A stretch of 64,000 nt of DNA from Beroe forskalii (taxonomy: Eukaryota > Ctenophora > Nuda > Beroida > Beroidae), in contig WFMF01000146.1 of NCBI GenBank assembly GCA_011033025.1, positions 248,001 through 312,000 on the forward strand, written 5' to 3'. Shown here one piece after another: positions 43,602 through 63,512 of the stretch. Position numbers and translations under genes: made by a program. The notes beneath the pieces were generated by a model. The model searched no databases. It worked only from the letters and a program-made list of their open reading frames with translations, and was not told where the DNA came from. Every line of letters starts with the position of its first letter. The stretch's first letter is position 1.

Positions 43602-45032
43602 ATGGAAGAAATTCACGAGATTCAAGACGAGATTCAGGAATTGGAGCCACCAATAATTGCTCCACTGGCAGGTATGACTCGACTGAGCACATATTATGCA
43701 CATCCAAATTGGATTTTCTAATCTCAAATCTGTATTGAAATGTCTATCAGCATTTTGATGAGCTTTGATCCTTCAAAACATGTACTAGATTTTTCATATA
43801 ACAAATCATAACAGCAAGCTGTGCAATGATTTATTGATTTTGTTTCGATTTCAGATGAAAGCTCACTCCCGGAAGAGGTAGCATCAGGAGACTCATACGA
43901 GGTGCTCACCAAGACCTTCACCTTCATCCTATCCTACCTGGTGTATCTGGTAGTGATGGGCGTAGTTCTGGAGTTCTGGGGTAAGCTAAAGGGCAGTACT
44001 AGGCAGTGCATAACGGAGGGTGTGAGTAAGTATTTGGTGGGGAGGGATACAGGGCAGAAGGAGGAAGATGATGTCTTCACAGACACAGAACCAGAACCTG
44101 CAACCCATCAAGACACAGAACAAGAACCAACAACCCATCAAGACACAGAACCAGAACCAAGCACAGAACCTGCAACTCTTGAAGACATGGAACCTGACAC
44201 AGAGCCTGACGTTTACACAGACATACAAACAGCTGACATACTGCTGCAATCTGATATCATGGAGGCTAGCATTCAGGAGGAAGTGTGGCCGGATACCCGT
44301 GCTGAGGCATACAAACAGCCAACCACTCAGGAAGAAGAAGATCCAATCACTCTGGAAGAAGAACAGGCATTCCCGATGGCTGAAGAACAAGCATTCCCAA
44401 TGGTTAAAGATGAGCCAGCCATTTTGTTTGAAGAAGAGCCAGTCCCAATGGTTGAAGAGGAGCTAGTCCCAATGGTTGAAGATCAGACAGTCACTTTGGT
44501 TGAACAAGAGCCAGTCATTTTGGTTGAAGCACAGCAGGCCACTCTGACCGAAAGAGAACCAGACTTACCAACTGACACAACCACACCAGCTTACATACAG
44601 GCAGGAGCGTCAGCAAGCACTGTAGACTTGGCCACAGAGACAAAGGAACAGTCGGAACCAGCAGCAGACAAACAGCCAGAAGCACAGAAAACTCCAGAGA
44701 TACAGGCAAACAGGCCAGCTGACGCAAAGGTGGACATACAAATAGACATACGGATTGGCACACAACGCGACATACAGGCAGACATACAGACCAACATTAG
44801 CACTGAGGACAAAACAGGGCAGCAAGCAGATGGTAAAGCTCCAGAGGGAGCAGGGGCAGATACAGGGAGTAATGCAGAGGACTCAGGACACGAATCAGGG
44901 AGTAATGATAGTGGAGATGTGAGGGAGTTCGACGATTTCTCCGTCTACGGTATCGCTGAGTCCTTCGTTCAGGATACGATTACCAAAGCTGTCGAACAGT
45001 GTCAGCAACTCGAACAGCAGATAATAGCGTGA
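43602..45032 (+). CDS. Single-pass membrane protein with AKAP-like C-terminal helix
   Basis: Exon 1 is 43602-43671 and exon 2 is 43855-45032; the intron has GTATGA and TTTCAG ends and splits a GAT codon, giving 415 residues. A short acidic N-terminus is followed by one membrane segment at about 45-62 (FTFILSYLVYLVVMGVVL) with no signal peptide, then a roughly 340-residue tail rich in Glu, Pro, Thr and Gln with tandem motifs (DTEPEP, EEEPVPMVEE, DIQ). The extreme C-terminus, residues 390-410, is an amphipathic helix (AESFVQDTITKAVEQC) that fits the A-xx-hh-xx-hh-xx-hh pattern of PKA RII-binding helices in A-kinase anchoring proteins. The role is therefore proposed as membrane anchoring of PKA; the tail is too low in complexity for a family call. 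It is convergent with the innexin locus downstream. Confidence 0.7.
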
Positions 45033-45059
45033 AGTGCTGATCAATCGGAATGCTCAAAG

Positions 45060-45800
45060 CTGCATGCTTTTATTCAAACCAATATTGTCATTACCCCAAA
45101 GTGGCGAAGTAGACTATTAATTTGTTTGTGAGTTGTGCCTTGTGACATGGACTTGCTTCGTTTTGTGTGATGGTTAGTGTGTATAATTGCTGCTTGAAAG
45201 AACTCGAAACGCAATGAATAAAACAAGAGCATCTTTCGTTCAGATTTCAGTAAGGCATCTCCTAGTTCATAATAGGAATGTGACAAATTGAATAGGAAAA
45301 TGCAATATACTGAAAATAGTTTCTTATACATAACATGTAATCCCATAAAAAGTGTTAATTTTGCAAGGGTTAAGATACTAAAATAAAAAAAGCGGACTGT
45401 TAATAGTTATATAGTGACATGAACTCTTAGGCAAGATTCAACGATATCTTGCGTCTAAACTTTCACAGTTATCATTGAGCTAAGAGCTATTCTGTGTGGA
45501 AAATTTAAAAATAATCGAATAAAACATATCATACAAAATATCATCGAGTATCAATCTATTATGTGTGTCAAATGTACAGTGTATGCAAAAATTGAAGATA
45601 TTTTATGATTTGAAATGGTGTTTTAAGTGGTGTCTCAATCATTGCTTCAAGATTATTATCTGTTTGACTTTTTTAAATTCAAATATGGCATAAAAATATT
45701 GTTAAACGAGTCTGTTAAAATGAGTCTGACTGCAAGGTCAGCAAGAATGGCACCATGCCATAACATTTTCCTACGTTATATGTAGCATCTACTACAGGGT
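45060..45800. repeat. Segmental-duplication flank, copy A
   Basis: Closely matches 52600-53560 in the same orientation, with scattered indels and substitutions (shared blocks include GCTGCTTGAAAGAACTCGAA and AATGGTGTTTTAAGTGGTGT). It separates the AKAP-like stop codon from the innexin C-terminal minisatellite. Confidence 0.9.
45217..45222 (+). terminator. Candidate poly(A) signal of the AKAP-like gene
   Basis: AATAAA lies 185 bases after the stop. The surrounding 3' flank, including this signal, is repeated at 52778-52783 by the segmental duplication. Confidence 0.45.
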
Positions 45801-45837: not shown

Positions 45838-48370
45838 TCACTACAGGGTATCCTCGAACTCGAGCTCATTGTCCGGGTGTATGAACTCCTCTTCTTCATC
45901 CTCTACTACAGGGTATCCTCGAACTCCAGCTCATTGTCCGGGTGTATAAACTCCTCCTCCTCCTCTACTACAGGGTATCCTCGAACTCCAGCTCATTGTC
46001 CGGGTGTATAAACTCCTCCTCCTCCTCTACTACAGGGTATCCTCGAACTCTAGCTCATTGTCCGGGTGTATAAACTCCTCCTCCTCCTCTACTACAGGGT
46101 ATCCTCGAACTCCAGCTCATTGTCCGGGTGTATAAACTCCTCCTCCTCCTCTACTACAGGGTATCCTCGAACTCCAGCTCATTGTCCGGGTGTATGAACT
46201 CCTCCTCCTCCTCTACTACAGGGTATCCTCGAACTCCAGCTCATTGTCCGGGTGTATAAACCTCCTCCTCCTCTACTACAGGGCATCCTCGAACTCCAGC
46301 TCATTGTCCGGGTGTATAAACTCCTCCTCCTCCTCTACTACAGGGTATCCTCGAACTCTAGCTCATTGTCCGGGTGTATGAACTCCTCCTCCTCCTCTAC
46401 TACAGGGTATCCTCGAACTCCAGCTCATTGTCCGGGTGTATGAACTCCTCCTCCTCCTCTACTACAGGGTATCCTCGAACTCCAGCTCATTGTCCGGGTG
46501 TATAAACTCCTCCTCTTCCTCTACTACAGGGTATCCTCGAACTCCAGCTCATTGTCCGGGTATAAACTCCTCCTCCTCCTCTACTACAGAGTATCCTCGA
46601 ACTCCAGCTCATTGTCCGGGTGTATAAACTCCTCCTCCTCTACTACAGGGTATCCTCGAACTCCAGCTCATTGTCCGGGTGTATGAACTCCTCCTCCTCC
46701 TCTACTACAGGGTATCCTCGAACTCCAGCTCATTGTCCGGGTGTATAAACTCCTCCTCCTCCTCTACTACAGAGTATCCTCGAACTCCAGCTCATTGTCC
46801 GGGTGTATGAACTCCTCCTCCTACTCTACTACAGGGTATCCTCGAACTCCAGCTCATTGTCCGGGTGTATAAACTCCTCCTCCTCCTCTACTACAGGGTA
46901 TCCTCGAACTCCAGCTCATTGTCCGGGTGTATAAACTCCTCCTCCTCCTCTACTACAGGGTATCCTCGAACTCCAGCTCATTGTCCGGGTGTATAAACTC
47001 CTCCTCCTCCTCTACTACAGGGTATCCTCGAACTCCAGCTCATTGTCCGGGTGTATAAACTCCTCCTCCTCTACTACAGGGTATCCTCGAACTCCAGCTC
47101 ATTGTCCGGGTGTATGAACTCCTCCTCCTCCTCTACTACAGGGTATCCTCGAAATCCAGCTCATTGTCCGGGTGTATAAACTCCTCCTCCTCCTCTACTA
47201 CAGGGTATCCTCGAACTCCAGCTCATTGTCCGGGTGTATAAACTCCTCCTCCTCCTCCTCTACAGGGTATCCTCGAACTCCAGCTCATTGTCCGGGTGTA
47301 TAAACTCCTCCACCTCCTCTACTACAGGGTATCCTCGAACTCCAGCTCATTGTCCGGGTGTATGAACTCCTCCTCCTCCTCTACTACAGGGTATCCTCGA
47401 ACTCCAGCTCATTGCCCGGGTGTATAAACTCCTCCTCCTCTACTACAGGGTATCCTCGAACTCCAGCTCATTGTCCGGGTGTATGAACTCCTCCTCCTCC
47501 TCTACTACAGGGTATCCTCGAACTCCAGCTCATTGTCCGGGTGTATAAACTCCTCCTCCTCCTCTACTACAGGGTATCCTCGAACTCCAGCTCATTGTCC
47601 GGGTGTATAAACTCCTCCTCCTCCTCTACTACAGGGTATCCTCGAACTCCAGCTCATTGTCCGGGTGTATAAACTCCTCCTCCTCCTCTACTACAGGGTA
47701 TCCTCGAACTCCAGCTCATTGTCCAGGTGTATAAACTCCTCCTCCTCCTCTACTACAGGGTATCCTCGAACTCCAGCTCATTGTCCGGGTATATAAACTC
47801 CTCCTCCTCCTCTACTACAGGGTATCCTCGAACTCCAGCTCATTGTCCGGGTGTATAAACTCCTCCTCCTCTACTACAGGGTATCCTCGAACTCCAGCTC
47901 ATTGTCCGGGTGTATGAACTCCTCCTCTTCCTCTACTACAGGGTATCCTCGAACTCCAGCTCATTGTCCGGGTGTATAAACTCCTCCTCCTCCTCTACTA
48001 CAGGGTATCCTCCAACTCCAGCTCATTGTCCGGGTGTATAAACTCCTCCTCCTCTACTACAGGGTATCCTCGAACTCCAGCTCATTGTCCGGGTGTATGA
48101 ACTCCTCCTCCTCCTCTACTATAGGGTATCCTCGAACTCCAGCTCATTGTCCGGGTGTATAAACTCCTCCTCCTCCTCCTCTACTACAGGGTATCCTCGA
48201 ACTCCAGCTCATTGTCCGGGTGTATAAACTCCTCCTCCTCCTCCTCCTCTACTACAGGGTATCCTCGAACTCCAGCTCATTGTCCGGGTGTATAAACTCC
48301 TCCTCCTCCTCTACTACAGGGTATCCTCGAACTCCAGCTCATTGTCCGGGTGTATAAACTCCTCCTCCTC
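45838..48370. repeat. 62-bp minisatellite derived from the innexin C-terminus, array A (~41 units)
   Basis: Very regular units, on the plus strand TACAGGGTATCCTCGAACTC, CAGCTCATTGTCCGGGTGTA, then TAAACTCCTCC and a variable CTC run. Read on the minus strand each unit can encode EFIHPDNELEFEDTL followed by TAG, that is, the last residues and stop of the innexin. The first unit (48314-48370) is the real coding end; the rest are downstream of the stop. 62 is not a multiple of three, so it is not a protein repeat. Confidence 0.95.
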
Positions 48371-51300
48371 CTCCTGACCCTGCTCCCTAAAGTCCTTCCT
48401 CTCCGACTCCCTCAACAGGTTCACCAGCTCGTTCAGCACATGCTCGAATATCTTGGGGTTCACGTTCTTTGCAATGAGTTGCAGGATCACCCTCCCTGAA
48501 GTGCCGGACTTCCTCCAGATCTCAGAGTAGGCGGGTTCGTCACGGAGGAAGGAGGTAGCGAGGAGGTTACGGTAGCTGCCCTGTGTGGAGCTGCTGCTTA
48601 GTTTTTATAACTATTCATATTCAAGTTTCTTCATAAGAAGTGTACATTATCTGGCATGAATTATCTTGAAATTATCTAGAATTTACTTCACCTGTATGAG
48701 GTCGAAGATGGAAAGTACCCGATAATTTCGGTACCTGAATCACCAGCTGGTTACTCTGAGTCACTGCAGAGTGACTAAGAGTCACTGCACCAAACCTGAA
48801 TGAAGTATGAGGATGTTTATGGATATCCCTGGAAATGGTGCTATGTCTATAACATCCCTACCTGGATGAAGCAGAGGTTGGAGATGGCGCAGAGGACGGA
48901 GATCACGTTGATGACAACAGTGACAACAAGTCCACCCCAGAAGATAAGGAAGAGGTACTGGTAGACAACATTAGCAGGCAGCACACACATCCCCTGCTCC
49001 TCCTCAATACCTGCACAGCTCAGGAGTCAGACAAGTCACGTGTTTTGAGAATTGTCATTGAGAGTGGACACCTCAGGGGTCAGATGTCATTTCAATTTGT
49101 GTCAGATGTCACATCTCATGGGTCAGGGGTTACGTGACTTTCAGAATTGAGAGTGTCTCTAGGTCAAATGTCAGAGGTCACGTGATTTTAGGAAATGAGA
49201 TGTCTCTATAGTGAACATGTGTCAGATGTGATTTTTGTGTGACATGAGATGTCTGGTGCAATGACAAACCACGTATGCTGCAAACTACACCATGTAAAGA
49301 GGCTGCACATAAACACACTGTCAGCTACACTGTTCAAACTCAAAGTCATTTGGATAAGTCATGCCGGATAAGGACATGGCAGCCAGGCAGCAGCTGTCCC
49401 TGCCAATGTCAATGCTTGACCGAGAAATGGCGTGGCTGGAGCCATGGTTTTCCGATGAAGTTGGGCCAGAGAATTCTGTCTGGCGCTTCGGTGGACCCAA
49501 AGGCGAAATATTATCGTGTGATTGGGCGAAGAACGGGATTTTGGGGAGGTACGGGATTCGTTCCGATCCACAGTAGCCCTGGCAACAGGGACCTCTCAGC
49601 GGGAGGTCCCGTGCCGGGGACTCTGTTTGGATCTCTTGTAGATCCATCCTCCGTTTAGTAGTAGATTAGGCGAAGAAAATGTTGTATGAACAAATGACAC
49701 AAGAGTTATCATAGAATTTCAACTGAGTCTGACAGAAGCAGCAAGCACACTGTTGGCATTGAATAAGGCTTTGATGACAATCACCCGCGCTGCTCCCGAT
49801 TTTAGCACTTGATTAAAGCTAAATTAGTTTGATCAGTAGATACGAAGAAATATGCTCTTAGAAACCTGGCCTAAAGGTATTGGTACATTCCAACCCGTTT
49901 TTCGGTACCCAAGTTCAATAATATGATGATAATCATTGGTCACAAAACAGGGGTTACACTTTGCACACTTTTACAAATACCACCAACACAACATCACATG
50001 TCACTTGAACATCGAGAACATGACATTCACATACCTGTAGCACCCCAGCGTTTTATCTCACAGGCAGCCATCTTAGGGAACAGCTTGTCTTGGATCTGAG
50101 TCTTGTAGTTCACACCAATCTGCAGAAGAAAACATGGCATAATCACGACTGTGCTTTTTAAGTCATTTGGGAAACTTTAGTTAAATGAATTTATTAATCA
50201 GACATCTATAGCCATCAAATTGAAGTTCAATGTTCCATAAGGGTGCGCTCCAAAGAAACATTATAATAAGGGCGAACTCTAGTGTTTTATTTGAAGTGAA
50301 ATGCCCTCATACCTCTTCCTCCTCCCGGGACCAGAGAATCCCGTACTCGAGGAAGCTGCCAATGTGGAACATCTGGGCAGTGAGCCAGAAGAGGAAGACA
50401 GAGAAGGCCAGGTAGCATGTCTTAGTGGACACGATGGTGAAGAAAAGAAGGTGTTTCTCCACTCTCTTACCGAAATACTGATCTGTGTGCATGTAGGCGT
50501 GTATCCTCACGAACAACCACCTGTGGGAGGTAGATTGGTAAAAAGTTGGTATTTTCAGTATAAAACCCGGGGGCATGTTTATCATATCTATTTCATGGAA
50601 TCTGGGACTTAAGAACAATATTAACAGGGTTAGTAAATGATTGTTGTAGGAAAAAGAGAAATTTATGTACGCTGGGTTGAACAAGAATTGCGCCTACCGG
50701 AGCATTTCTTGTACCTACGTTTGTTGATTGTTCCCGTATGCAGGCGCTTCATTTCCTGTTCCCCGGGGCTGGTATTACAATTAGAACACGCTGTCATTTG
50801 ACTGTTGTCCGTCTTATTTGCTGATATAGTGAGTTGACGATAAAGCACAAAAGTGACCTCACAAATCAAGATACAATCGCGGGCGTACACCTACGGGAAT
50901 TAAGAGCAAGAGTTGGTATTCAATAGATTTACGATTTATCTGAAATAATTTTCCGTGATAAAACGCTTCTTTTATCAAGTGTGACATCGCAATACTAACA
51001 TCATTGAATCAATTTTATAAATATTCCTCGTTATGCGGGCGCTATACATTTCTCTACTACAAGTTTGAATTAACGCGCGCAGATCTAAATATCACGTGGG
51101 CGAATTCGTTCCACGTGCCAAATGTTCGCGCGCGCGTTCCCGCCATTTCATAGAACTCTCTGAAGATTCGTTGCGCGCCGTTCAGAGTTTCATAACCATG
51201 ATCACCATTTTCGTTACGCGTTAAATTTTCTTTTGTGTTGCGTTGCAGATATCAAACCATTGCAATGTTCGCTAATATTGTACCCCGCCTTGATATTTTC

Positions 51301-52450
51301 AAGATTGAAATACACAATATAATTATTAATTACTGAACAAGATTAAAGCTTCAGATATATCATTGTTGTTATCAATCATGAACCGAGACAAACTCTCATG
51401 TTTATTTTCCTCTAGTCAATTCTTTAGATCATTCATAACTGATGGCACTAATACTGCCCATTGTAAATTGGCCGAGTTGCCCGCTGCTTAAAGAAGTCCA
51501 AATGGCTGTGTGATTGAAATCCAATCTGATTGATACCGTGAAAATCAATTAAGTTTTGATTTTATGATTGTTAAATTTTTGATATAGAACATCAGCATCA
51601 ACAGAGCATTGAACTCAAATACCTACAAAGTAGCCCAGTTAGCTAGTTGCAGCCCATAATGCGAAGGATGCCAATACACCAAGCTACTCTGACGCGAGTG
51701 ATATTATAAAGGAGCAGTTGATCAAAAAGGGACATACGACGACATACGATGACATACGACCAAATTTGGTCGCGCGCAGCACACCACCTATTTCAGATTT
51801 AACAGTACGCATAAAGGTAGTATACACACAACCCCCACAAAACACGATCTCTGCTAACCTTTTCTCAATGCCTTTTTGTAAAACAAAAACGCGATTGGGA
51901 ACAGGAAAAAATGATAATGACCATGGTTAAAACATCAAAGTGCCAGCCTCAAAGTTGCGATCGAATGATTCTACATCACAGTTATGGACGATAAGTATCA
52001 ATGCTCTGCTATAGACCTGGCAGCTTTGCTGGTTAACAATTCCAAGTCCTCTGCCGTCTCCACTGGGTTGTGGAGCATTGCTATAACTGGCTTTAGAGCG
52101 CCCATGCCTGGGGTAATACTTTGGGTTGAAAAGGGCTGCTTATGTAGACCCCATACAAGTTACATCTCAACTTCAGCCCACGAAATTTATGAATGATTCG
52201 TCCCAAATAACATTTTATGATGGTTACACACTGGTAGTAGTGTGGCAGTAGTGGTACTTGTTTGTTTTTAACACCTTACTATTGCAACTGAAGACGATTC
52301 TATTGGTTATTAAACAAACTTAAGCAAGCATGTATAATGATATCCTCAAGTTTATTACCGAAGAACTTGAACATCATGTAGGGCACGAAGAAGATGCAGG
52401 AGGCTGTCCAGAAGTAGAATGCAGTGAACTGGTACCAAGAGTGGTAAATC
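48314..52450 (-). CDS. Innexin, 3' six-exon cassette A (lacks first transmembrane exon)
   Basis: Exons: 52450-52359, 52107-52017, 50520-50313, 50119-50035, 49010-48862, 48580-48314; all GT/AG and in phase, 892 coding bases. They encode the second membrane segment (YQFTAFYFWTASCIFFVPYM), cytoplasmic loop, third segment (HLLFFTIVSTKTCYLAFSVF), second extracellular loop with its two conserved Cys (KMAACEIKRW and GMCVLPAN), fourth segment (FLIFWGGLVVTVVINVISVL) and a cytoplasmic tail ending EFEDTL. The Cys spacing and CVLPAN before TM4 are the innexin signature; innexins form gap junctions and hemichannels in the plasma membrane. No exon for TM1 or extracellular loop 1 lies upstream: 86 bases beyond the first exon the sequence changes to a fragment of the AKAP-like gene. 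Either these exons splice to a 5' exon shared with cassette B, or the copy is headless. Confidence 0.83.
48862..49010 (-). CDS. Innexin A exon: loop-2 cysteine and TM4
   Basis: Acceptor GTGCAG|GT, donor CAG|GTAGGG. Encodes IEEEQGMCVLPANVVYQY and the fourth membrane helix. It differs from its B counterpart by two silent changes. Confidence 0.85.
49430..49660. other. GC-rich segment present only in intron of cassette A
   Basis: A 71-codon plus frame (49361-49576) and a 108-codon minus frame cross this segment, which contains a GGGACCTC/GAGGTCCC hairpin at 49588-49610. The matching intron of cassette B diverges at about 61560. It may be an inserted mobile or gene fragment; I recognise no product. 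Confidence 0.4.
50313..50520 (-). CDS. Innexin A exon: TM3 region
   Basis: 208 bases, 69 codons plus one base; acceptor CCCACAG|GTGG, donor GAG|GTATGA. Encodes WLFVRIHAYMHTDQYFGKRV, the third membrane helix and the start of the second extracellular loop. Twelve bases differ from cassette B, all silent. Confidence 0.87.
50684..51910. mobile_element. Non-autonomous hairpin-ended element, copy 2
   Basis: It interrupts the intron between innexin A exons 52107-52017 and 50520-50313; cassette B lacks it (its intron is 267 bp against 1496), giving an empty site near 62915. The left end CAAGAATTGCGCC folds to TTTCTTG, then TTTCCTGTTCCC; the right end carries ATGCCTTTTTGTAAAACAAA then GGGAACAGGAAA. 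Same design as 20572-21951. Confidence 0.75.
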
Positions 52451-52535
52451 CTGGGGACATGATCAAAGTTAATCCTATCTCTAACAAATAGTAATTTATC
52501 TCTAACAAATAGTAATTTGTCGTGTTCTTCTCCGA

Positions 52536-52601
52536 TCGTTCAGGTCCAATTACCAAAGTTGTTAAAAGGTCAGCAACCCCGAACAGCAGATAATAGCGTG
52601 A
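52536..52601 (+). pseudogene. 3' fragment of the AKAP-like gene
   Basis: It matches 44966-45032, the last coding bases of the AKAP-like gene, from TCGTTCAGG through AACAGCAGATAATAGCGTGA, with small indels that destroy the frame. It marks the boundary of the tandem duplication: left of it is innexin intron, right of it is the duplicated 3' flank. Confidence 0.85.
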
Positions 52602-53600
52602 GGTGCTGACAATCGGAATGTCGGCTGCATGGAAATTATTCAAACCTATATTGTCATAACCCCAAAGGGCGAATAGACTTTTAAATTTTTTTTTGGGAGT
52701 TGTTTTAAAATGAACTTGTTTGTTTTGTGTGATGGTTAGGTGTATGGTTGCTGCTTGAAAGAACTCGAAACGCAATGAATAAAACAAGAGCATCTTTCGT
52801 TCAGATTTCAGTAAAGCATCTCCTAGCTTATAATTGGAATGTGACAAATTGAAAAATGCAATATACTGAAAATAGTTTCTTAAAATAGCATGTAATCCCA
52901 TGAAAAGTGTTAATTTTGCAAGGGTAAAGATACTCAAATAAAAAAGCGGGCTGTAGTTATATAGTGACATGAACTCTTAGGCAAGGTCCATTGAGTTCTT
53001 GCGTTTACACTTTTAGAGTTATCATTGAGCTTCAGTGTGGAAAAATTTAAAAATAATTAAATAAACATATTATACAAAATATCATCGAGTATCAATCAAT
53101 TATGTGTGTCAAAATTCAAATGTACAGTGTATGCAAAAACTGAAGATATTTTATGATTTGAAATGGTGTTTTAAGTGGTGTCTCAATTATTGCTACAAGA
53201 TTATTAACGATAGGCAATTGCCAATCTGTTTGACTTTTTAAATTCATATAATATGGCGTAAAAATATTGCTAAAATAATCTACTAAAGTATGGCTGACTC
53301 AAGGTCAGCAAGACTGAGGAAAAGGCGAATTTTCCATTGATAACATAAATATTTTTGAATATCACTCAAGGGGGCCCAAAAATTTCAGTTTTAATCATGA
53401 TGACATATATAATAAAATTGAAATTGGTTTTTTAATATTGAAGTATTTTCCCTTAAAAAATACGATTTAAATTTCGAATGCAATTCCACATTTTCAAAAT
53501 CTTGCGGGCATCATATCAACGTTAATTGTCTCATAAAGAATGGTACCAAGACCTTAATCCTAAGTTATGCAGCCTGTACAACTGGAGTACTTCTACAGGG
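52602..53600. repeat. Segmental-duplication flank, copy B
   Basis: Second copy of 45060-45800, extended by about 230 bp of additional AT-rich sequence at 53330-53560. It lies between innexin cassette A and the C-terminal minisatellite of cassette B. Confidence 0.9.
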
Positions 53601-53618
53601 TAAGGGTTAGTTCTTGTT

Positions 53619-56470
53619 ACAGGGTATCCTCGAACTCCAGCTCATTGTCCGGGTGTATAAACTCCTCCTCCTCCTCCTCTACTACAGGGTATCCTCGAAC
53701 TCCAGCTCATTGTCCGGGTGTATAAACCTCCTCCTCCCTCGAACTCCAGCTCATTATCCAGGTGTCCTCCTCCTCCTCCTCTACTGAACTCCTCCAGCTC
53801 ATTGTCGGGTATAAACTCCTCTCCTCCTCCTCACAGGGTATCCTCGAACTCCAGCTCATTGTCCGGGTGTATAAACTCTCCTCCTCCTCTACTACAGGGT
53901 ATCCTCGAACTCCAGCTCATTGTCCGGTGTATAAACTCCTCCTCCTCCTCTACTACAGGGTATCCTCGAACTCCAGCTCATTGTCCGGGTGTATGAACTC
54001 CTCCTCCTCCTCTACTACAGGGTATCCTCGAACTCCAGCTCATTGTCCGGGTGTATAAACTCCTCCTCCTCCTCTACAGGGTATCCTCACAGGGTATCCT
54101 CCTCCTCCTCCTCTACTACCGAACTCCAGCTCATTGTCCGGGTGTATAAACTCCTCCCCTCCTCCTACTACAGGGTATCCCTCCTCCTCCTCTCGAACTC
54201 CAGCTCATTGTCCGGGTGTATAAACTCCTCCTCCTCCTCTTACTACAGGGTATCCTCGAACTCCAGCTCATTGTCCGGGTGTATGAACTCCTCCTCCTCC
54301 TCTACTACAGGGTATCCTCGAACTCCAGCTCATTGTCCGGGTGTATAAACTCCTCCTCCTCCTCTCTACTACAGGGTATCCTCGAACTCCAGCTCATTGT
54401 CCGGGTGTATAAACTCCTCCCTCCTCCTCTACTACAGGGTATCCTCGAACTCCAGCTCATTGTCCGGGTGTATAAACTCCTCCTCCTCCTCTACTACAGG
54501 GTATCCTCGAACTCCAGCTCATTGTCCGGGTGTATAAACTCCTCCTCCTCCTCTACTACAGGGTATCCTCGAACTCCAGCTCATTGTCCGGGTGTATAAA
54601 CTCCTCCCTCCTCCTCTACTACAGGGTATCCCTCGAACTCAGCTCATTGTCCGGTGTGTATCCTCCGAACTCCACTCATTGTCAGTGTATAAACTCCTCC
54701 TCCTCCTCTACTACAGGGTATCCTCGAACTCCAGCTCATTGTCCGGGTGTATAAACTCCTCCTCCTCCTCTACTACACAGGGTATCTCCTCCTCCTCTAC
54801 ACAGAACTCCAGCTCATTGTCCGGGTGTATAAACTCCTCCTCCTCCTCTACTACAGGGGTATCCTCGAACTCCAGCTCATTGTCCGGGTGTATAAACCCT
54901 CCTCCTCCTCTCTACAGAACCTCCAGCTCATTGTCCGGGTGTCCTCCTCTACAGGGAGTATCCCTCGAACTCCATAAACTCCAGCCTTAGCTCATTGTCC
55001 GGGTGTATAAACTCCTCTTCCCTCCTCTACTACAGGGTATCCTCGAACTCCAGCTCATTGTCCGGGTGTATAAACTCCTCCTCCTCCTCTACTACAGGGT
55101 ATCCTCGAACTCCAGCTCATTGTCCGGTGTATAAACTCCTCCTCCCTCTACTACAGGTGGTCCTCCAGCTCATTGTCCGGGTGTATAAACTCCTCCTCCT
55201 CCTCTACTACAGGGTATCCTCGAACTCCAGCTCATTGTCCGGTGTATAAACTCCTCCTCCTCTACTACAGGGTCCTCGAACTCCAGCTCATTGTCCGGGT
55301 GTATTAAACTCCTCCTCCTCCTCTACTACAGGGTATCTCCAACCAGCAGGGGTATATCCTCGAACTCCAGCCAGCTCATTGTCCGGGTGTATCCTCCTCC
55401 TCCTCTAAGGGTATCCTCAGAACTCCTCCTTGTCTACTACAGGGTGTATCCTCGAACTCCAGCTCATTGTCCGGGTGTATAAACTCCTCCTCCTCCTCTA
55501 CTACAGGGTATCCTCGAACTCCAGCTCATTGTCCGGGTGTATAAACTCCTCCTCCTCCTCTACTACCTCGAACTCCAGCTCAGTGTATAAACTCCTCCTC
55601 CTCCTCTACTACTCCAGCTCATTGTCCGGGTGTATGAACTCCTCCTCCTCCTCTACTACAGGGCAGTCCTCGAACTCCAGCTCATTGTCCGGGTGTATAA
55701 ACTCCTCCTCCTCCTCTACTACACCGAACTCCAGCTCATTGTCCGGGTGTATAAACTCCTCCTCCTCCTCCTCCCTCTACTACAGGGTATCCTCGAACTC
55801 CAGCTCATTGTCCGGGTGTATGAACTCCTCCTCCTCCTCTACTACAGGGTATCCTCGAACTCCAGCTCATTGTCCGGGTGTATAAACTCCTCCCTCCTCT
55901 ACTACAGAGGTATCCTCGAACTCCAGCTCATTCGGGTGTATAAACTCCTCCTCCTCCTCCTCTACTGTCAGGGTATCCTCGAACTCCAGCTCATTGTCCG
56001 GGTGTACAAACTCCTCCCCTCCTCTACTACAGGGTATCCTCGAACTCCAGCTCATTGTCCGGGTGAACTCCTCCTCCTCTACTACAGGGTATCCTCGAAC
56101 TCCAGCTCATTGTGTGTATGAACCGGGTATAAACTCCTCCTCCTCCTCCCTCTACTACAGGGTATCCTCGAACTCCAGCTCATTGTCCGGGTGTATAAAC
56201 TCCTCCTCCTCTACTACAGGGTATCCTCGAACTCCAGCTCATTGTCCGGGTGTATAAACTCCTCCTCCTCCTCTACTACAGGGTATCCTCGAACTCCAGC
56301 TCATTGTCCGGGTGTATAAACTCCTCCTCCTCCTCTACTACAGGGTATCCTCGAACTCCAGCTCATTGTCCGGGTGTATAAACTCCTCCTCCTCCTCTAC
56401 TACAGGGTATCCTCGAACTCCAGCTCATTGTCCGGGTGTATAAACTCCTCCTCCTCCTCCTGACCCTGCT
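53619..56470. repeat. 62-bp innexin C-terminal minisatellite, array B (~45 units, irregular)
   Basis: Same unit as array A but with many truncated or fused units and single-base losses (GTCCGGTGTA for GTCCGGGTGTA, CTCCCTC for CTCCTC) between about 53710 and 56160; the units nearest the gene (56160-56470) are regular again. It ends with the real innexin coding end (56400 onwards). Confidence 0.93.
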
Positions 56471-59400
56471 CCCTAAAGTCCTTCCTCTCCGACTCCCTCA
56501 ACAGGTTCACCAGCTCGTTCAGCACATGCTCGAATATCTTGGGGTTCACGTTCTTTGCGATGAGTTGCAGGATCACCCTCCCTGAGGTTCCGGACTTCCT
56601 CCAGATCTCGGAGTAGGCGGGTTCGTCACGGAGGAAGGAGGTAGCCAGGAGGTTACGGTAGCTGCCCTGTGTGGGACTGCTGCTTAGTGGTAATAGTCTT
56701 TATAACGAAATTTCAGGTCTAACGATAAGAAGTATAATTATGTGATCTGTAATAAATAACCGTACAGAAAGTATATAGGACTTGTATTTCTTGTCGATTT
56801 CTGCCTGGATGATGGACAGATGTTGGCTTTAACCGAAGCGAAGCTGCCCGATAACTTTTCAAAATTACCCGATAATTTCGATACCTTATTCACCAGCTGG
56901 TGACTCAGATTTACTGCATAGTGACTGCACCAAACCTTGAAAGTATATAACCTGTATGAAGCAGAGGTTGGAGATGGCGCAGAGGACGGATATCACGTTG
57001 ATGACAACAGTGACAACAAGTCCACCCCAGAAGATAAGGAAGAGGTACTGGTAGACAACATTAGCAGGCAGCACACACATCCCCTGCTCCTCCTCAATAC
57101 CTGCACAGCTCAGGGGTCAGATGTGGTTTCAACTTGTGTCAGATGTCACATCTCATGTGTCAGATGTCAGAGGTCAGATGTCAGAGGTCACGTGATTTTA
57201 ATAAATGAGATGTCTCCAGTCTGTAGAGTGGACATGTAATGTGTCAGTATGATTTCAGGACATGGGATGTCTTTTGAGTGGACAATGGACATGTGTCAGA
57301 TGTGATTTTCGGAAATGGGCATGAGATGTCAGATGTGATGAGGTCGGGCTTTTCAAGATTTAACCACGTAGGTAGGTAGGTAAAATGCGCTTCCGCAGAG
57401 GCGCTGTGCCATACGACATGGCCCCTCATAGTCTGAGAGGCAACGGTCGCGGTTTGGCTGATATGTTGGCATAACTAATAGTCTATATAGTAGAGGACAG
57501 ATATCTATACAGAGTATTGTTCGCTTATCTATATTCTCCAATTGGGTAATAGACCCCAATGGCCCCAACTCAAGCAGTTATCTGTCTGTTCAACTTGAGC
57601 CGAAAAAATACGGTTTGCTTCTTTTTAAGGCGATGAAGCAACCAAATCTTCTCCTCCCATTCTTCTTTATTTCTTGGACAAGTAATGGGAAAGAATGTCC
57701 TGAGTCATGTTTCTCATTATTGGGCAAACAGAGTGAATCCCCCTTTTTTGGTTTGTTTATATTTCTTGTTTTTTGTGTATTCCTGCAAGTGAAGCTCCTG
57801 TCCTTGAGGCTCTTTTTGAAATCGAAAAAGTGTGTTTTGTTCAGGCTCAAGAATGAGGAAGTTTACTATGTTATTACTAAAGCGTCTCCGAGCAGTGTTC
57901 TCTGGTCGACTATCATTGGCATCAACGTACTTAGATTTTTTTTGCTTACTTTTCACATAATTTTGGTGGTTATATAATTTAGTTCTTTCTTGTTTCATTT
58001 TCGATGATCCATTGTTTACCTAATGAAGGAGGCATTTTCCATGATCAGTACTTCCATATTTTTAAGCTGATGTTTTAGTGCATACTGTAACTCATAATTA
58101 TGAGTTACCTTGCTTTTTTGTCAGTTAATTCATGATTTGTGCAGTTCGCCGATTACATTGACGGTAGGGTGTGCTTAATTGCATTTGATGTTATCCATGT
58201 TGTTATTACTACATGTGATGAGGTATCCACTATCAAAGTCCTTATTCATATCTTTTTTGGCGTGTATGCCGTAAGGCAGGCTTTTTGTGTTTTATTGATG
58301 AACTCTCAAGTAGGTTTCATCGCAATATTTATGTCTACTATTTATAAGAATGGTTTTTTGGTTGATTTAAATGCTGGGACAGCTTAATATTTTGTGTTTC
58401 TTCTATGAGTGATGGTGTGTTGTACGTTTCTATCATCCACTGGTTTCAGGGGAATGATTAGTTTAATACGTCCCAGTTTAAAGAAATTGGTGTGCAATGA
58501 TTTTTTGATATATCAATAAAGTTTGTCGAAAATTTTCATTGACAAAGTGGTTATAGTATTAATGTTGATTTGGTAAATTGTTAAATTTGGTAAATTTGTA
58601 AGGCCATTTTTAAAAGATTTGTACCAGGTTGGAAGCAAACTTTGGTGCATGCATTTTTTCTGTTTTTTTTTGTTTAATGTGCGAAGTTATCATGTTAATG
58701 TCATATGGTGTAACAATGCTGCGTTTTTCAGTACACATTATTCATGTGTTCACTGGAAACAGCTGGTTTTTTGGAGCAAAGGCTTCCAGGTCTTGGTTCT
58801 TGGGGCAGAGAACAACTCTGTTATTCTCCACCCACCCCACTTCGAGAAGAAAGTAGAGTGTTGCCAAAAACTGTGACCTGATATAGGTAGAATACCTTAG
58901 TACCAGAAATATAGGCGACTATTAATTAAGGCGCAAGATATTAAGGCGACAAGATATTAAGGCGATTTTTCCTGGAATTCAAATTGATTTTTTTTTTCGA
59001 AAATAAACGATTTTTTTTTCATTTAAAATAGCTATGATATGAATGTAAAATTGAACGAAAATGCAAAAAAATCTTGTTAAGTGGGCCTTCAAAATACATC
59101 ATATCCTGAGCTTTTCAAACGGGCAAATCCTCTCGTGTCCGTGAACTGCCGATTTCCGACATTTCGTTTAATCTTATCCCAGATGGGATGACAAGGGATG
59201 TTTCATTTTCTTAATTTGGCCTACGCGAGAGCTTGGACTGTGATTTTCTGTCTTGGCTTGGTTATGAAAGCTTTAGGATTGAAAAGTATTATTGTTAAAA
59301 AAAATTCAAACTACCACTCCTCATTCAAATTCTGTTGCCACCATCCCTGGCAAGTGGGAACTAATGGCTGGATTACGTCATTGTACTAATGTTCTCACGT

Positions 59401-62400
59401 TGTACTGTACAATGATGCACAATATTATTCCTTTTCCTTCAAACGGGTCAATCAACATTCTAGAGTCAATACCGGCATCGTTCCACAGTGCAGTGATACC
59501 AGAAGTTGCACTGATAACTGGCTATTAAGTTATTTATTAATTACTATGTTGCTAAATTGAAAAAGTCGATCGGGAGGAAAAAATAACTGAAAAATTAAGA
59601 CGACCAGATATTTAGATGACCAGATATTAAGGCGACAAGAAATTAAGGCGATTTTTACAAAATCGCCTTAATTTCTTGTCGCCTATATTTCTGGTACTAA
59701 GGTATAACTGGCAGCAGTTTTGTACTAGTGAGGAGTTATTGGTTTGTTGGGGAGATGCATGGATCTATTTGGTTGTTGAGCTCACTTCGAGCTGTTGGGT
59801 TGTTGGGCTAAATGCAGATATGGAGCTGTTTGGTTTGATGGAGCTAGGTATTAGGTTGTTGGGCTCTCATGGAGCTATTGAGATGTTGGGCTCCCATGTC
59901 ATGGTTCTTGGGGAGGAGGATAACACTGTTATTCTCCACCCACCCCATTTACAAAAGATAGTGGGGTGTTGCCAATAGCCAATGACCATGGTGATCTGTT
60001 TCGATTGAAACTGGAAGCAGTTTTGTAAATGGATGAGTTTGAGGGGTGTAGGGTACTTGTGAATCACACGAAGCTCTTGGGTAGTTGAGCTCAGCTGGGG
60101 CTCTTGGGTAATTTTGCTCAAATGTAGTTTTTGGGGTTAGATCAAGCAGTTGAGTTGTTGGGCTAACATAGAGCTTTTGCGTTGTTGGGCTCACCTGGAG
60201 CTAATTGGTTGTTGAGCTTACAAGTTGGAGCTATTGAGTTATGGAATGTGGGCTCACAATGAGCTATTGGGTTGAAGGGCTCACATGGAGCTATTGGGTT
60301 GTTAGGCTCACATGGAGCTATTTGGTTATTGGGCACACAAGGAGCTATTGAGTTTTTGGGCTCACATGGAGCTATTGAGTTGTTGTGCTCAGATGGAGCT
60401 ATTGGGTTGTTCGGCTCACATGGAGCTACTGGGTTGTTGGGCTCACATGGAGCTATTGGGTTGTTGGACTCACAAGCAGTTATTGGGTTGTTGGGCTCAC
60501 ATGGAGCAATTGGGTTGTTGGGCTCACAAGGAGCTATTGGGTTGTTGGGCTCACCTGGAGCTATTGGGTTGTTGGGCTCACCTGGAGCTATTGGGTTGTT
60601 GGGCTCACCTGGAGCTATTGGGTTGTTGGGCTTACAAGGAGCTATTGGCTTGTTGGGCTCACCTGGAGCTATTAGGTTGTGGGGCTCACAAGGAGCTATT
60701 GGGTTGTTGGGCTCACCTGGAGCTATTGGGTTGTTAGGCTCACATGTTCACATGGAGCTATTGGGTTGTTGGGCTCACCTGGAGCTATTGGGTTGTTGGG
60801 CTCGCATGGAGCTATTGGGTTGTTGGGCTCACCTGGAGCTATTGGGTTGTTGGGCTCACATGGAGCTATTGGGTTGTTGGGCTCACCTGGAGCTATTGGG
60901 TTGTTGGGCTCACCTGGAGCTATTGGGTTGTTGGGCTCACCTGGAGCTATTGGGTTGTTGGGCTCACCTGGAGCTATTGGGTTGTTGGGCTCACCTGGAG
61001 CTATTGGGTTGTTGGGCTCACCTGGAGCTATTGGGTTGTTGGGCTCACCTGGAGCTATTGGGTTGTTGGGCTCACAAGGAGCTATTGGGTTGTTGGGCTC
61101 ACCTGGAGCTATTGGGTTGTTGGGCTCATATGGAGCTATTGGGTTGTTGGGCTCACCTGGAGCTATTGGGTTGTTGGGCTCACCTGGAGCTATTGGGTTG
61201 TTGGGCTCACCTGGAGCTATTGGGTTGTTGGGCTCGCATGGAGCTATTGGGTTGTTGGGCTCACATGGAGTAGAGTCAGATGTGATTTTCGGAAATGGGC
61301 ATGAGATGTCAGATGTGATGAGGTCGGGCTTTTCAAGATTTAACCACGACAAACCACGTGTGCTGCAATCTACATCATGTAATGAGCTGCACACGATACG
61401 GCTATTTGAAGTTCTATAAAGTGGCTTCACATAAACACACTGTCAGCTACACTGTTTACACTCAAAGTTATTTAGATATCAACTAGAACTGTGGGATAAG
61501 GTCATGACAGCAGCTGTCCCTGCCAATATCGATGCATGATCGGAAAATAGGCATGGAGTCATGAAGTACACCCCCTCGTTTTGAAAACCCCCCTCCCTTA
61601 GAAAAATCTTAGGGGGGGGGGGGGCTTGGCCCTACCCAGTAAATTTGAACATTGAAATGAAGTTTAAAATCAAGTTCAGATAAACCGAAGTTTCCATGAA
61701 ATCCATCTTTTCAGAATCAAAGCAAACAGAAAACATGATTTCAGTTGTATTTTCATGCATAATTAGGGTTTTTAAATGTCAAAATTCCATTATGAAACTT
61801 TTACGCCCCCTTAGTTTTCAAAGCCCCCCTAGAAAATATCTAAGGGGGCCCACTAGATCAAAAAGGTGTGTAATGACATGCATCCCTGGTATTAATATAA
61901 AATGTGACACAAGGTTTAAGATACCTTAACCTTTTACTCTTTTACTGAATCTGACAGAAGCAGTAAGCAGTAAGCACACTGTTGGCTTTGAATAAGGCTT
62001 TGATGGCTAACACTCGCGCGGCTCCCGATTTTCGCATTTGATTGAAGTTAAATTAGCTTGATCAGTAGATACGAAGAAATATGCCTTTAAAATCCTGGCC
62101 TGAAGGTCTTCTTAAATTTCAATACGTTTTTGGTACTCAAGTTCAATAACACGATGATAATCAGTCATCACAAAACAGGAGTAGCACTTTGCACACCTTT
62201 ACAAATACCACCAACACAACATCACATGTCACTTGAACATCGAGAACATGACATTCACATACCTGTAGCACCCCAGCGTTTTATCTCACAGGCAGCCATC
62301 TTGGGAAACAGCTTGTCTTGGATCTGAGTCTTGTAGTTCACACCAATCTGTCGAAGAATTCATTGCATAATCACAACTTTGCTTTTGAAGGCTTTGGGGA

Positions 62401-63512
62401 AACTGGATGTTTAGTGAAATGAATTTATGAATCAGACATCTGTAGCCATCAAATTCAAGCTCAATGTTCCATAAGGGTGCGCTCCAAAGAAACATTAAAA
62501 AAGGTGCACCCCAGTGTTTAAGATGAAGTGAATTGCCTGCAGTCCATACCTCTTCCTCCTCCCGGGACCAGAGAATCCCGTACTCGAGGAAGCTGCCAAT
62601 GTGGAACATCTGGGCAGTGAGCCAGAAGAGGAAGACAGAGAAGGCCAGGTAGCAGGTCTTGGTTGACACGATGGTGAAGAAGAGCAGGTGCTTCTCCACC
62701 CTCTTCCCGAAATACTGGTCTGTGTGCATGTAGGCGTGTATCCTAACAAATAACCACCTGTGGGAGGTAGGTTGGTAAAAGTGGGATATCTTCATGGGGG
62801 CATGTTCAATGTTCATCATATCTTATTATGGGAGTTGCGACTTAAGAAAAATATTCAGGGTTATTGAATGATGGTCGTAGGAAAAAGGGAATTTTATGTA
62901 CGCTGGATTAATAAATACTAATGACTATGGTTAATAACGCATCAAAGTTTTGAGCCTCAAAGCTGAGATGGAATAATTCTACGTCTCAGTTTTGGACAAT
63001 TAGTATCACTATTTTGCAATAAACCTTGCAGCTTTGCTTGTTAACAGCTCCAGATCCTCTGCCGTCTCCACAGGGTTGTGTAGCATTGCTATAACTGGCT
63101 TTAGAGCGCCCATGCCTGCAATACTTGTGGTTAGAAATAGGTTAATGTCATGTGGACCCATGCCTGGGATAAAACTTGGGGTTGGTAATAGCTGCATATG
63201 CAGACCCCATGCAAATTATATCTCCACTTCAGCCCACGAAATTTATAAAATAGAAATAATTCGTCCCAAATAACATTTTATGAAGGTTACACACTGGTAG
63301 TATTACGCGTCTTTTTAGAGACCTTAGTATTACAACTGATCATGAATTTATTGCGAATTAAACAAAATTAATCAAACAGAATTATTGAGTATGTGATAAT
63401 AACACCCCCCAGTTTATTACCGAAGAACTTGAACATCATGTAGGGCACGAAGAAGATGCAGGAGGCCGTCCAGAAGTAGAAGGCAGTGAACTGGTACCAG
63501 GAGTGGTAGATC
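56400..63512 (-). CDS. Innexin, 3' six exons of cassette B (5' exons outside window)
   Basis: Exons: 63512-63421, 63115-63025, 62757-62550, 62347-62263, 57100-56952, 56666-56400; GT/AG sites, phases and exon lengths identical to cassette A, and the encoded 296 residues appear identical. This is the copy that keeps the ancestral upstream side, so the TM1 exon and promoter should lie beyond 64000. Its fourth intron is 5.2 kb against 1.0 kb in cassette A because of an insertion. The last exon encodes GSYRNLLATSFLRDEPAYSE, the VILQLIAKNVNPKIFEHVL helix typical of innexin C-termini, a Glu run and a terminal DTL that could act as a class III PDZ ligand (inference). Confidence 0.85.
56952..57100 (-). 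CDS. Innexin B exon: loop-2 cysteine and TM4
   Basis: Counterpart of 49010-48862; donor CAG|GTTATA. Confidence 0.85.
58895..59702. mobile_element. 808-bp DNA-transposon-like element with TIRs and TA target site
   Basis: Terminal inverted repeats begin CCTTAGTACCAGAAATATAG at both ends and are flanked by TA on each side (58893-58894, 59703-59704), as in Tc1/mariner-type insertions. Inner ends repeat ATTAAGGCGACAAGA. No transposase frame, hence non-autonomous. Confidence 0.85.
60190..61270. repeat. 27-bp minisatellite, ~38 units
   Basis: The unit is GGAGCTATTGGGTTGTTGGG plus CTCACCT. 27 is a multiple of three and the unit has no stop in several frames, so frames of up to 333 codons run through it on the plus strand (GAIGLLGSP, ELLGCWAHL, SYWVVGLTW) and on the minus strand (PNNPIAPGE). 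It sits in an intron of innexin cassette B, so these frames are most likely chance. Confidence 0.95.
61562..61862. mobile_element. Insertion with CCCCC-rich repeated ends in cassette B intron
   Basis: CCCCCTCGTTTTGAAAACCC and CCCCCTTAGTTTTCAAAGCC are direct, related blocks about 250 bp apart, each followed by TTAGAAAA / CTAGAAAA and TCTTAGGGGG / TCTAAGGGGG, so each block is itself a small hairpin. Absent from cassette A. Confidence 0.55.
62550..62757 (-). CDS. Innexin B exon: TM3 region
   Basis: Counterpart of 50520-50313; the same 69 codons, donor GAG|GTATGG, acceptor CCCACAG|GTGG. Confidence 0.87.

What the first reader, a model, noticed from the sequence alone, without database searches (positions are those of the whole stretch)
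48314..63512. Two innexin cassettes with identical protein but about 33 silent differences
Comparing the six exon pairs by eye I count 4, 8, 12, 2, 2 and 5 base differences (33 in 892 bases) and no amino-acid change. Introns differ much more, including kilobase insertions in either copy, so wholesale recent copying is not the explanation. Zero replacement against 33 silent changes means both sets of exons are under strong constraint, although one copy has no 5' end of its own.
Basis: partly seen in the sequence, partly recalled or inferred. Interest (0 to 1): 0.85.

Follow-up and report, generated by a model that had tools for sequence, protein, structure and literature searches.

The report
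Innexin gene with duplicated back part
In what is probably a comb-jelly genome, the last two-thirds of a gap-junction (innexin) gene exists twice in a row behind one shared front end, and although the two copies have drifted apart in DNA they still encode exactly the same protein, which suggests that both are used.

Summary
Confirmed. Two six-exon cassettes, minus strand (A 48314-52450, B 56400-63512), differ at 4, 8, 12, 2, 2 and 5 = 33 of 892 bases. None changes an amino acid; dS is 0.20 and dN 0. They are the last six exons of one innexin gene. Its three 5' exons lie outside the window (72.9-74.3 kb in window numbering), have one identical place each in the assembly and fit both cassettes in phase; joined, they match Pfam Innexin at 3.4e-41.

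It is most likely a true, old tandem duplication. The junction (about 52.5 kb) joins innexin intron to the coding end of a convergent neighbour gene. That 66-bp scrap has decayed, whereas the innexin exons have not. Aligned introns differ by about 17%.

Best reading: the shared 5' exons are spliced to either cassette, giving one identical 422-aa subunit, so both stay under purifying selection. There is no RNA evidence. The main rival is a recent fusion of two long-diverged functional haplotypes. Silent changes are unevenly spread (24 of 33 in codons 1-95): patchy homogenisation of the 3' part is possible, but does not explain the absence of replacements in the 5' part.

The parts
48314..48580 (-). 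Cassette A exon c6 (last coding exon, stop TAG; 267 bp, 5 silent differences to B)
48862..49010 (-). Cassette A exon c5 (149 bp, 2 silent)
50035..50119 (-). Cassette A exon c4 (85 bp, 2 silent)
50313..50520 (-). Cassette A exon c3 (208 bp, 12 silent, all in its first 103 bases)
52017..52107 (-). Cassette A exon c2 (91 bp, 8 silent)
52359..52450 (-). Cassette A exon c1 (92 bp, 4 silent, all upstream of the first in-frame ATG)
56400..56666 (-). Cassette B exon c6
56952..57100 (-). Cassette B exon c5
62263..62347 (-). Cassette B exon c4
62550..62757 (-). Cassette B exon c3
63025..63115 (-). Cassette B exon c2
63421..63512 (-). Cassette B exon c1
45840..48373 (.). Minisatellite A, 62-bp unit made of the end of exon c6 including its stop codon; overlaps the last bases of exon c6
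53618..56459 (.). Minisatellite B, same 62-bp unit, with more length irregularities; overlaps the last bases of exon c6 of B
44965..45749 (.). Segment F: coding end and 3' flank of the convergent plus-strand neighbour gene; left limit of the duplicated block
52536..53316 (.). Segment F': duplicated copy of F, beginning with a frameshifted scrap of the neighbour's last codons
52499..52536 (.). Duplication junction: innexin intron (copy A) joined to the neighbour gene's coding end; BLAST homology to B ends at 52499 (by eye about 52527), homology to F begins at 52536

Best explanation
An old tandem duplication copied the back of an innexin gene (end of the intron before c1, exons c1-c6, minisatellite, 3' flank) but not its three 5' exons. 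SHOWN: two intact cassettes behind one set of 5' exons on the same strand; the same reading phase at both entry points; zero replacement in 33 changes; a decayed neighbour-gene scrap at the junction. INFERRED: the primary transcript runs through B and A; exon 3 is joined to c1 of B or, skipping B, to c1 of A. Each choice, and each forward switch from ck of B to ck+1 of A, encodes the same 422-aa subunit, so splicing need not be regulated. Because innexins assemble as multimers (recalled), a damaged cassette would feed bad subunits into the channels, so selection keeps both cassettes identical at the protein level although one is redundant.
For: Exact counts, dS 0.199, dN 0. The 5' third alone: 24 silent, 0 replacement. 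5' exons with one identical place each, matching phase, joined protein an innexin over nearly the whole profile. Exon c1 codons 1-24, before the first in-frame Met, carry 4 silent and 0 replacement changes (8.8 replacements expected if one copy were neutral), so c1 appears to be read as a continuation of upstream exons, not as a 5' leader. No ATG lies in the open frame between the nearest upstream stop and c1 in A. Control at the junction: of 8 changed codons in the scrap, 3 are replaced, 4 hit by indels and 1 silent, against 33 of 33 silent in the innexin exons.
Against: No transcript data. Use of A needs a splice of about 20 kb past a complete cassette. The poisoned-multimer idea is untested. 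Silent divergence is uneven, so some of the identity in codons 96-296 may come from sequence exchange. No outgroup was available, so changes cannot be assigned to A or B. With the 17% noncoding divergence as yardstick the pre-Met test weakens to 5.2 replacements expected (P 0.006).
Confidence: 0.6

Rival explanations
1. Recent fusion of diverged haplotypes: an unequal exchange between two long-separated functional alleles (or introgressed copies) created the tandem recently. The 33 silent changes built up while each copy was the only one in its lineage; A may now be unused.
For: The exons alone cannot exclude this. Hormiphora californensis, a ctenophore, is very heterozygous (3.2% combined, 2% SNP), and its authors say that the intron figure has an artificial ceiling (PMC8527503, passages read).
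Against: Intron difference about 17% is far above the published heterozygosity. The neighbour-gene scrap, coding before the event, has frameshifts and replacements at 12.7% substitution (8 of 63), at least as diverged as the noncoding flank F (9.3%), so the event looks about as old as the A/B split. The neighbour looks like a low-complexity acidic protein, so this control is not perfect.
Confidence: 0.17
2. Assembly artefact: two alleles of a single-copy gene laid end to end in one contig.
For: Array B is irregular with many small indels, which may reflect a poor consensus. Haplotigs were a problem in a ctenophore long-read assembly (PMC11184263, passages read).
Against: No N in the 113 kb examined. 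The junction joins non-homologous places, intron to neighbour's exon, which is hard to get by overlapping allelic reads. No copy on another contig close enough to be an allele was found with seven queries: two cassette exons gave only A and B; the three 5' exons, the neighbour gene and the nested receptor gave no near-identical second copy.
Confidence: 0.06
3. Exon-limited gene conversion, not selection on A, keeps the proteins identical.
For: Codons 96-296 have 9 silent changes on 131 sites against 147 of 893 aligned positions in the neighbouring introns (P 0.004); identical runs of 105-159 bp in c3-c6; the commonest array unit is letter-identical in both arrays.
Against: Codons 1-95 have 24 changes on 57.7 silent sites and no replacement; conversion would erase silent changes too. 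It can contribute in the 3' part only.
Confidence: 0.1
4. A is a separate, N-truncated innexin with its own promoter or spliced-leader 5' end, starting at the Met of codon 25.
For: A sequence 37 of 44 identical to the H. californensis spliced leader, followed by GTAAG, is in this genome, so a 5' end could be supplied in trans.
Against: Codons 1-24 of c1 lie before that Met, yet have 4 silent and 0 replacement changes. The product would lack the part encoded by exons 1-3, which hold the N-terminus and the first-loop cysteines.
Confidence: 0.07

Closest known systems
Mutually exclusive tandem-duplicated exons (human survey PMC9741552: abstract and passages seen)
   Same: Homologous exons in tandem behind shared exons; only one set can end the protein.
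   Different: There the isoforms differ in the duplicated region. Here six exons with the 3' end are duplicated and the protein is identical.
Genes with one constant 5' part and alternative 3' cassettes (Drosophila mod(mdg4), lola; recalled, nothing read here)
   Same: Shared 5' exons, several 3' sets.
   Different: Those 3' sets encode different domains; here they encode the same one.
Ctenophore innexin genes (INXA-INXR) and the INXB-D cluster (PMC9949713: abstract, Results part 1 of 3, and found passages read)
   Same: Same protein family; the authors see tandem duplication as a source of ctenophore innexins.
   Different: There whole genes are clustered; what I read describes no partial duplicate. 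The family letter of this gene was not determined.

Membership tests
Innexin (PF00876) | Match to the family profile over nearly its whole length | tested here: met
   Joined 5' exons plus cassette: E 3.4e-41, profile 1-331 of 333; C. elegans innexin-6 structure E 6e-5
Innexin (PF00876) | Forms gap junctions or hemichannels | not testable with these tools
   needs electrophysiology
Mutually exclusive tandem-duplicated exons | Homologous exons in tandem behind shared exons, same phase | tested here: met
Mutually exclusive tandem-duplicated exons | Isoforms differ in the duplicated region | tested here: not met
   0 of 296 residues differ
Mutually exclusive tandem-duplicated exons | Both versions found in mRNA, never together | not testable with these tools
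   no RNA data
Pseudogene by partial duplication | Stops, frameshifts, broken splice sites or relaxed replacement rate | tested here: not met
Haplotype (false) duplication | Allele-like divergence and a junction at homologous positions or a gap | tested here: not met
   raw reads were not available

The most novel reading that the evidence does not exclude
A gene with two interchangeable back parts: splicing picks either, even switching between them midway, without regulation, and selection against poisoned multimers keeps the redundant parts identical in protein for as long as it takes silent sites to drift by about 20% or more.
Probability: 0.33. Interest if true: 0.72.

Novelty: new variant of a known kind. 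Interest (0 to 1): 0.52.

Why it matters
Redundant duplicates are expected to decay or diverge. A partial gene copy that cannot make a whole innexin on its own, kept free of replacements over substantial silent divergence, is a natural test of why redundancy is retained: dosage, tolerance of splicing errors, or selection against dominant-negative subunits. I did not see such an innexin in what I read of PMC9949713 or among the papers listed (20 of 118 listed; 12 of 199 listed).

Tried and rejected
Haplotype or assembly duplication: rejected as main reading (junction, divergence, no allele-like copy elsewhere). Pseudogene A: rejected. Poly(A) signals as evidence for read-through from B into A: no AATAAA lies between the B stop and A c1, and the counterpart of the AATAAA at 45074 is changed in F', but only 1.6 are expected in 52451-53617, so I do not use it. 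Inverted repeats of 14 bp or more near A c1 (52300-53650) that could steer splicing: none. Species: probably a ctenophore. AATTTGAGGTAAG has 74 exact sites against 10 for the reversed control; of six loci taken, two (L033, L034, both on contig C229) match the published leader at 37 of 44, three at 16-21 of 44, and in one my script did not find the site. Literature searches (15 of 28 listed; 4 of 4; 5 of 5) showed in titles and abstract openings no case of protein-identical duplicated cassettes. PMC3236188 (Dscam), PMC9013439 and PMC6092874 were seen in search listings only.

Full report
OBSERVATION. With GT-AG boundaries the six exon pairs are 92, 91, 208, 85, 149 and 267 bp and differ at 4, 8, 12, 2, 2 and 5 positions: 33 of 892, no amino-acid change, equal lengths (one search had one boundary off by one base and is superseded). 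dS is 0.199, dN 0; the upper 95% bound on dN/dS is about 0.02. A run of 33 silent changes has probability 3.6e-21 without constraint. If only one of the two copies were neutral, about 61 replacements would be expected.

WHAT IT IS. The cassettes are the last six exons of an innexin gene on the minus strand. The window is G000:C188:248001-312000. Reading the contig beyond the window gave three 5' exons at 74104-74283, 73178-73274 and 72854-72953 in window numbering. They end in the phase that c1 of both cassettes needs. The joined 422-aa protein matches Innexin over profile positions 1-331 of 333 at E 3.4e-41 and C. elegans innexin-6 at 6e-5. In the assembly, the exon 1 query matches one place plus its own repeat units, exon 3 one place, and exon 2 one place at 100% with two weaker matches at 80-81% elsewhere. 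Two cassette exons searched (c3 and most of c6) are found only as A and B. So no 5' end for cassette A was found apart from the shared one.

HOW IT AROSE. The duplicated unit runs from the coding end of a convergent plus-strand neighbour gene (44965) through its 3' flank (F), the minisatellite and c6-c1 into the intron before c1. Copy A keeps the original left neighbour, copy B keeps the original 5' exons, and the junction near 52.5 kb joins the innexin intron (BLAST homology to B ends at 52499, by eye about 52527) to a 66-bp scrap of the neighbour's last codons (from 52536). This is the layout of a tandem duplication and not of a join of alleles: there are no N, the joined places are non-homologous, and seven queries show no allele-like copy on another contig (the nearest other match of the receptor gene is 71% identical). 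Aligned introns plus the 5' flank differ at 241 of 1402 positions (my sum) and F at 70 of 750. The intron figures are probably lower bounds, because large parts of introns 4 and 5 no longer align.

INTERNAL CONTROL. The neighbour-gene scrap was coding DNA that lost its gene in the event. Of its 8 changed codons, 3 are replaced, 4 hit by indels and 1 is silent (8 substitutions in 63 columns, 3 indels). The innexin exons have 33 changed codons, all silent (Fisher P about 5e-7, computed with 31 in place of 33 silent codons). This is the main argument that the duplication is old and that the innexin exons were kept under selection after it. Its weakness is that the neighbour looks like a low-complexity acidic protein that may always have been loosely constrained, and that the scrap is short.

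UNEVEN SILENT DIVERGENCE. Codons 1-95 carry 24 silent changes on 57.7 silent sites, codons 96-296 only 9 on 131.2. The best split lies inside exon c3; 1 of 2000 random placements was as extreme over all split points. On the 3' side silent sites are less diverged than introns (P 0.004), on the 5' side more (P 0.0002). The longest identical runs, 105 to 159 bp, lie in c3-c6, and three of the four extend into intron. The commonest 62-bp array unit is identical in both arrays (10 copies in A, 8 in B). Patchy conversion or constraint on silent sites may therefore act in the 3' part. It does not explain zero replacements in codons 1-95, where about 47 would be expected if one copy were neutral.

MECHANISM. 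Three ways could give A a 5' end. Splicing from the shared exon 3 past B fits the phases and the constraint on c1 codons 1-24, which precede the first in-frame Met (4 silent, 0 replacement; 8.8 expected with local silent divergence, P 1.5e-4; 5.2 expected with the 17% noncoding yardstick, P 0.006). A truncated protein starting at that Met would leave those codons free. A start by spliced leader is possible in principle, since a sequence 37 of 44 identical to the Hormiphora leader is in this genome, but it meets the same objection. Splicing of the shared exons to either cassette is therefore preferred. Forward switches from ck of B to ck+1 of A keep frame and give the same protein. Why a redundant part is kept is inference: damaged subunits would poison multimeric channels.

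CONTEXT. A 7TM receptor with LDLa repeats (67903-70002 in window numbering, minus strand) lies inside the intron between exon 3 and B c1. Nested genes parallel with their host are reported as many in Hormiphora (PMC8527503, section 38 read). Heterozygosity there is 2% SNP and 3.2% combined, with a stated ceiling on the intron figure (passages); the 17% seen here is well above that.

VERDICT. Real, probably not an artefact, and more unusual than a plain duplicate gene, but without RNA the use of cassette A is inferred. It is filed as a variant of tandem exon duplication, not as a member of the mutually exclusive exon class, because a defining feature (different isoforms) was tested and not met.

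Noticed in passing
L010:837-1130 (window numbering 73837-74130), minus strand: The end of innexin exon 1 is a 33-bp, in-frame tandem repeat of 8.9 copies with nine AAG-GT splice-donor-like sites, one per unit; each unit encodes VSVIECDGFIK with the first-loop cysteine, so donor choice could lengthen the docking loop by 11 residues per step.
   Followed up: partly
45840-48373 and 53618-56459: Both 62-bp minisatellites are copies of the last coding bases of exon c6 including the stop codon; the commonest unit is identical in the two arrays although the introns differ by about 17%.
   Followed up: partly
L009:4903-7002 (window numbering 67903-70002), minus strand: A same-strand LDLa-7TM receptor gene is nested in the innexin intron between exon 3 and B c1; its full extent was not worked out.
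   Followed up: partly
63609-64410 and window numbering 66349-67151: An 800-bp inverted repeat, 98% identical, lies just 5' of cassette B: a foldback or transposon-like element.
   Followed up: no
57285-57368 and 61265-61348: An 84-bp direct repeat (95%) brackets the 3.9-kb extra segment in B intron 4, which also holds a 27-bp minisatellite of about 41 copies (60150-61270).
   Followed up: no
G000:C1036:377738-390856: Sixteen AATTTGAGGTAAG sites on one strand, mostly about 0.73 kb apart, look like a possible tandem array of spliced-leader genes; the array itself was not read.
   Followed up: no
30177-31109: Open frame of 310 aa with a match to vitelline membrane outer layer protein I (E 1.6e-9).
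   Followed up: no
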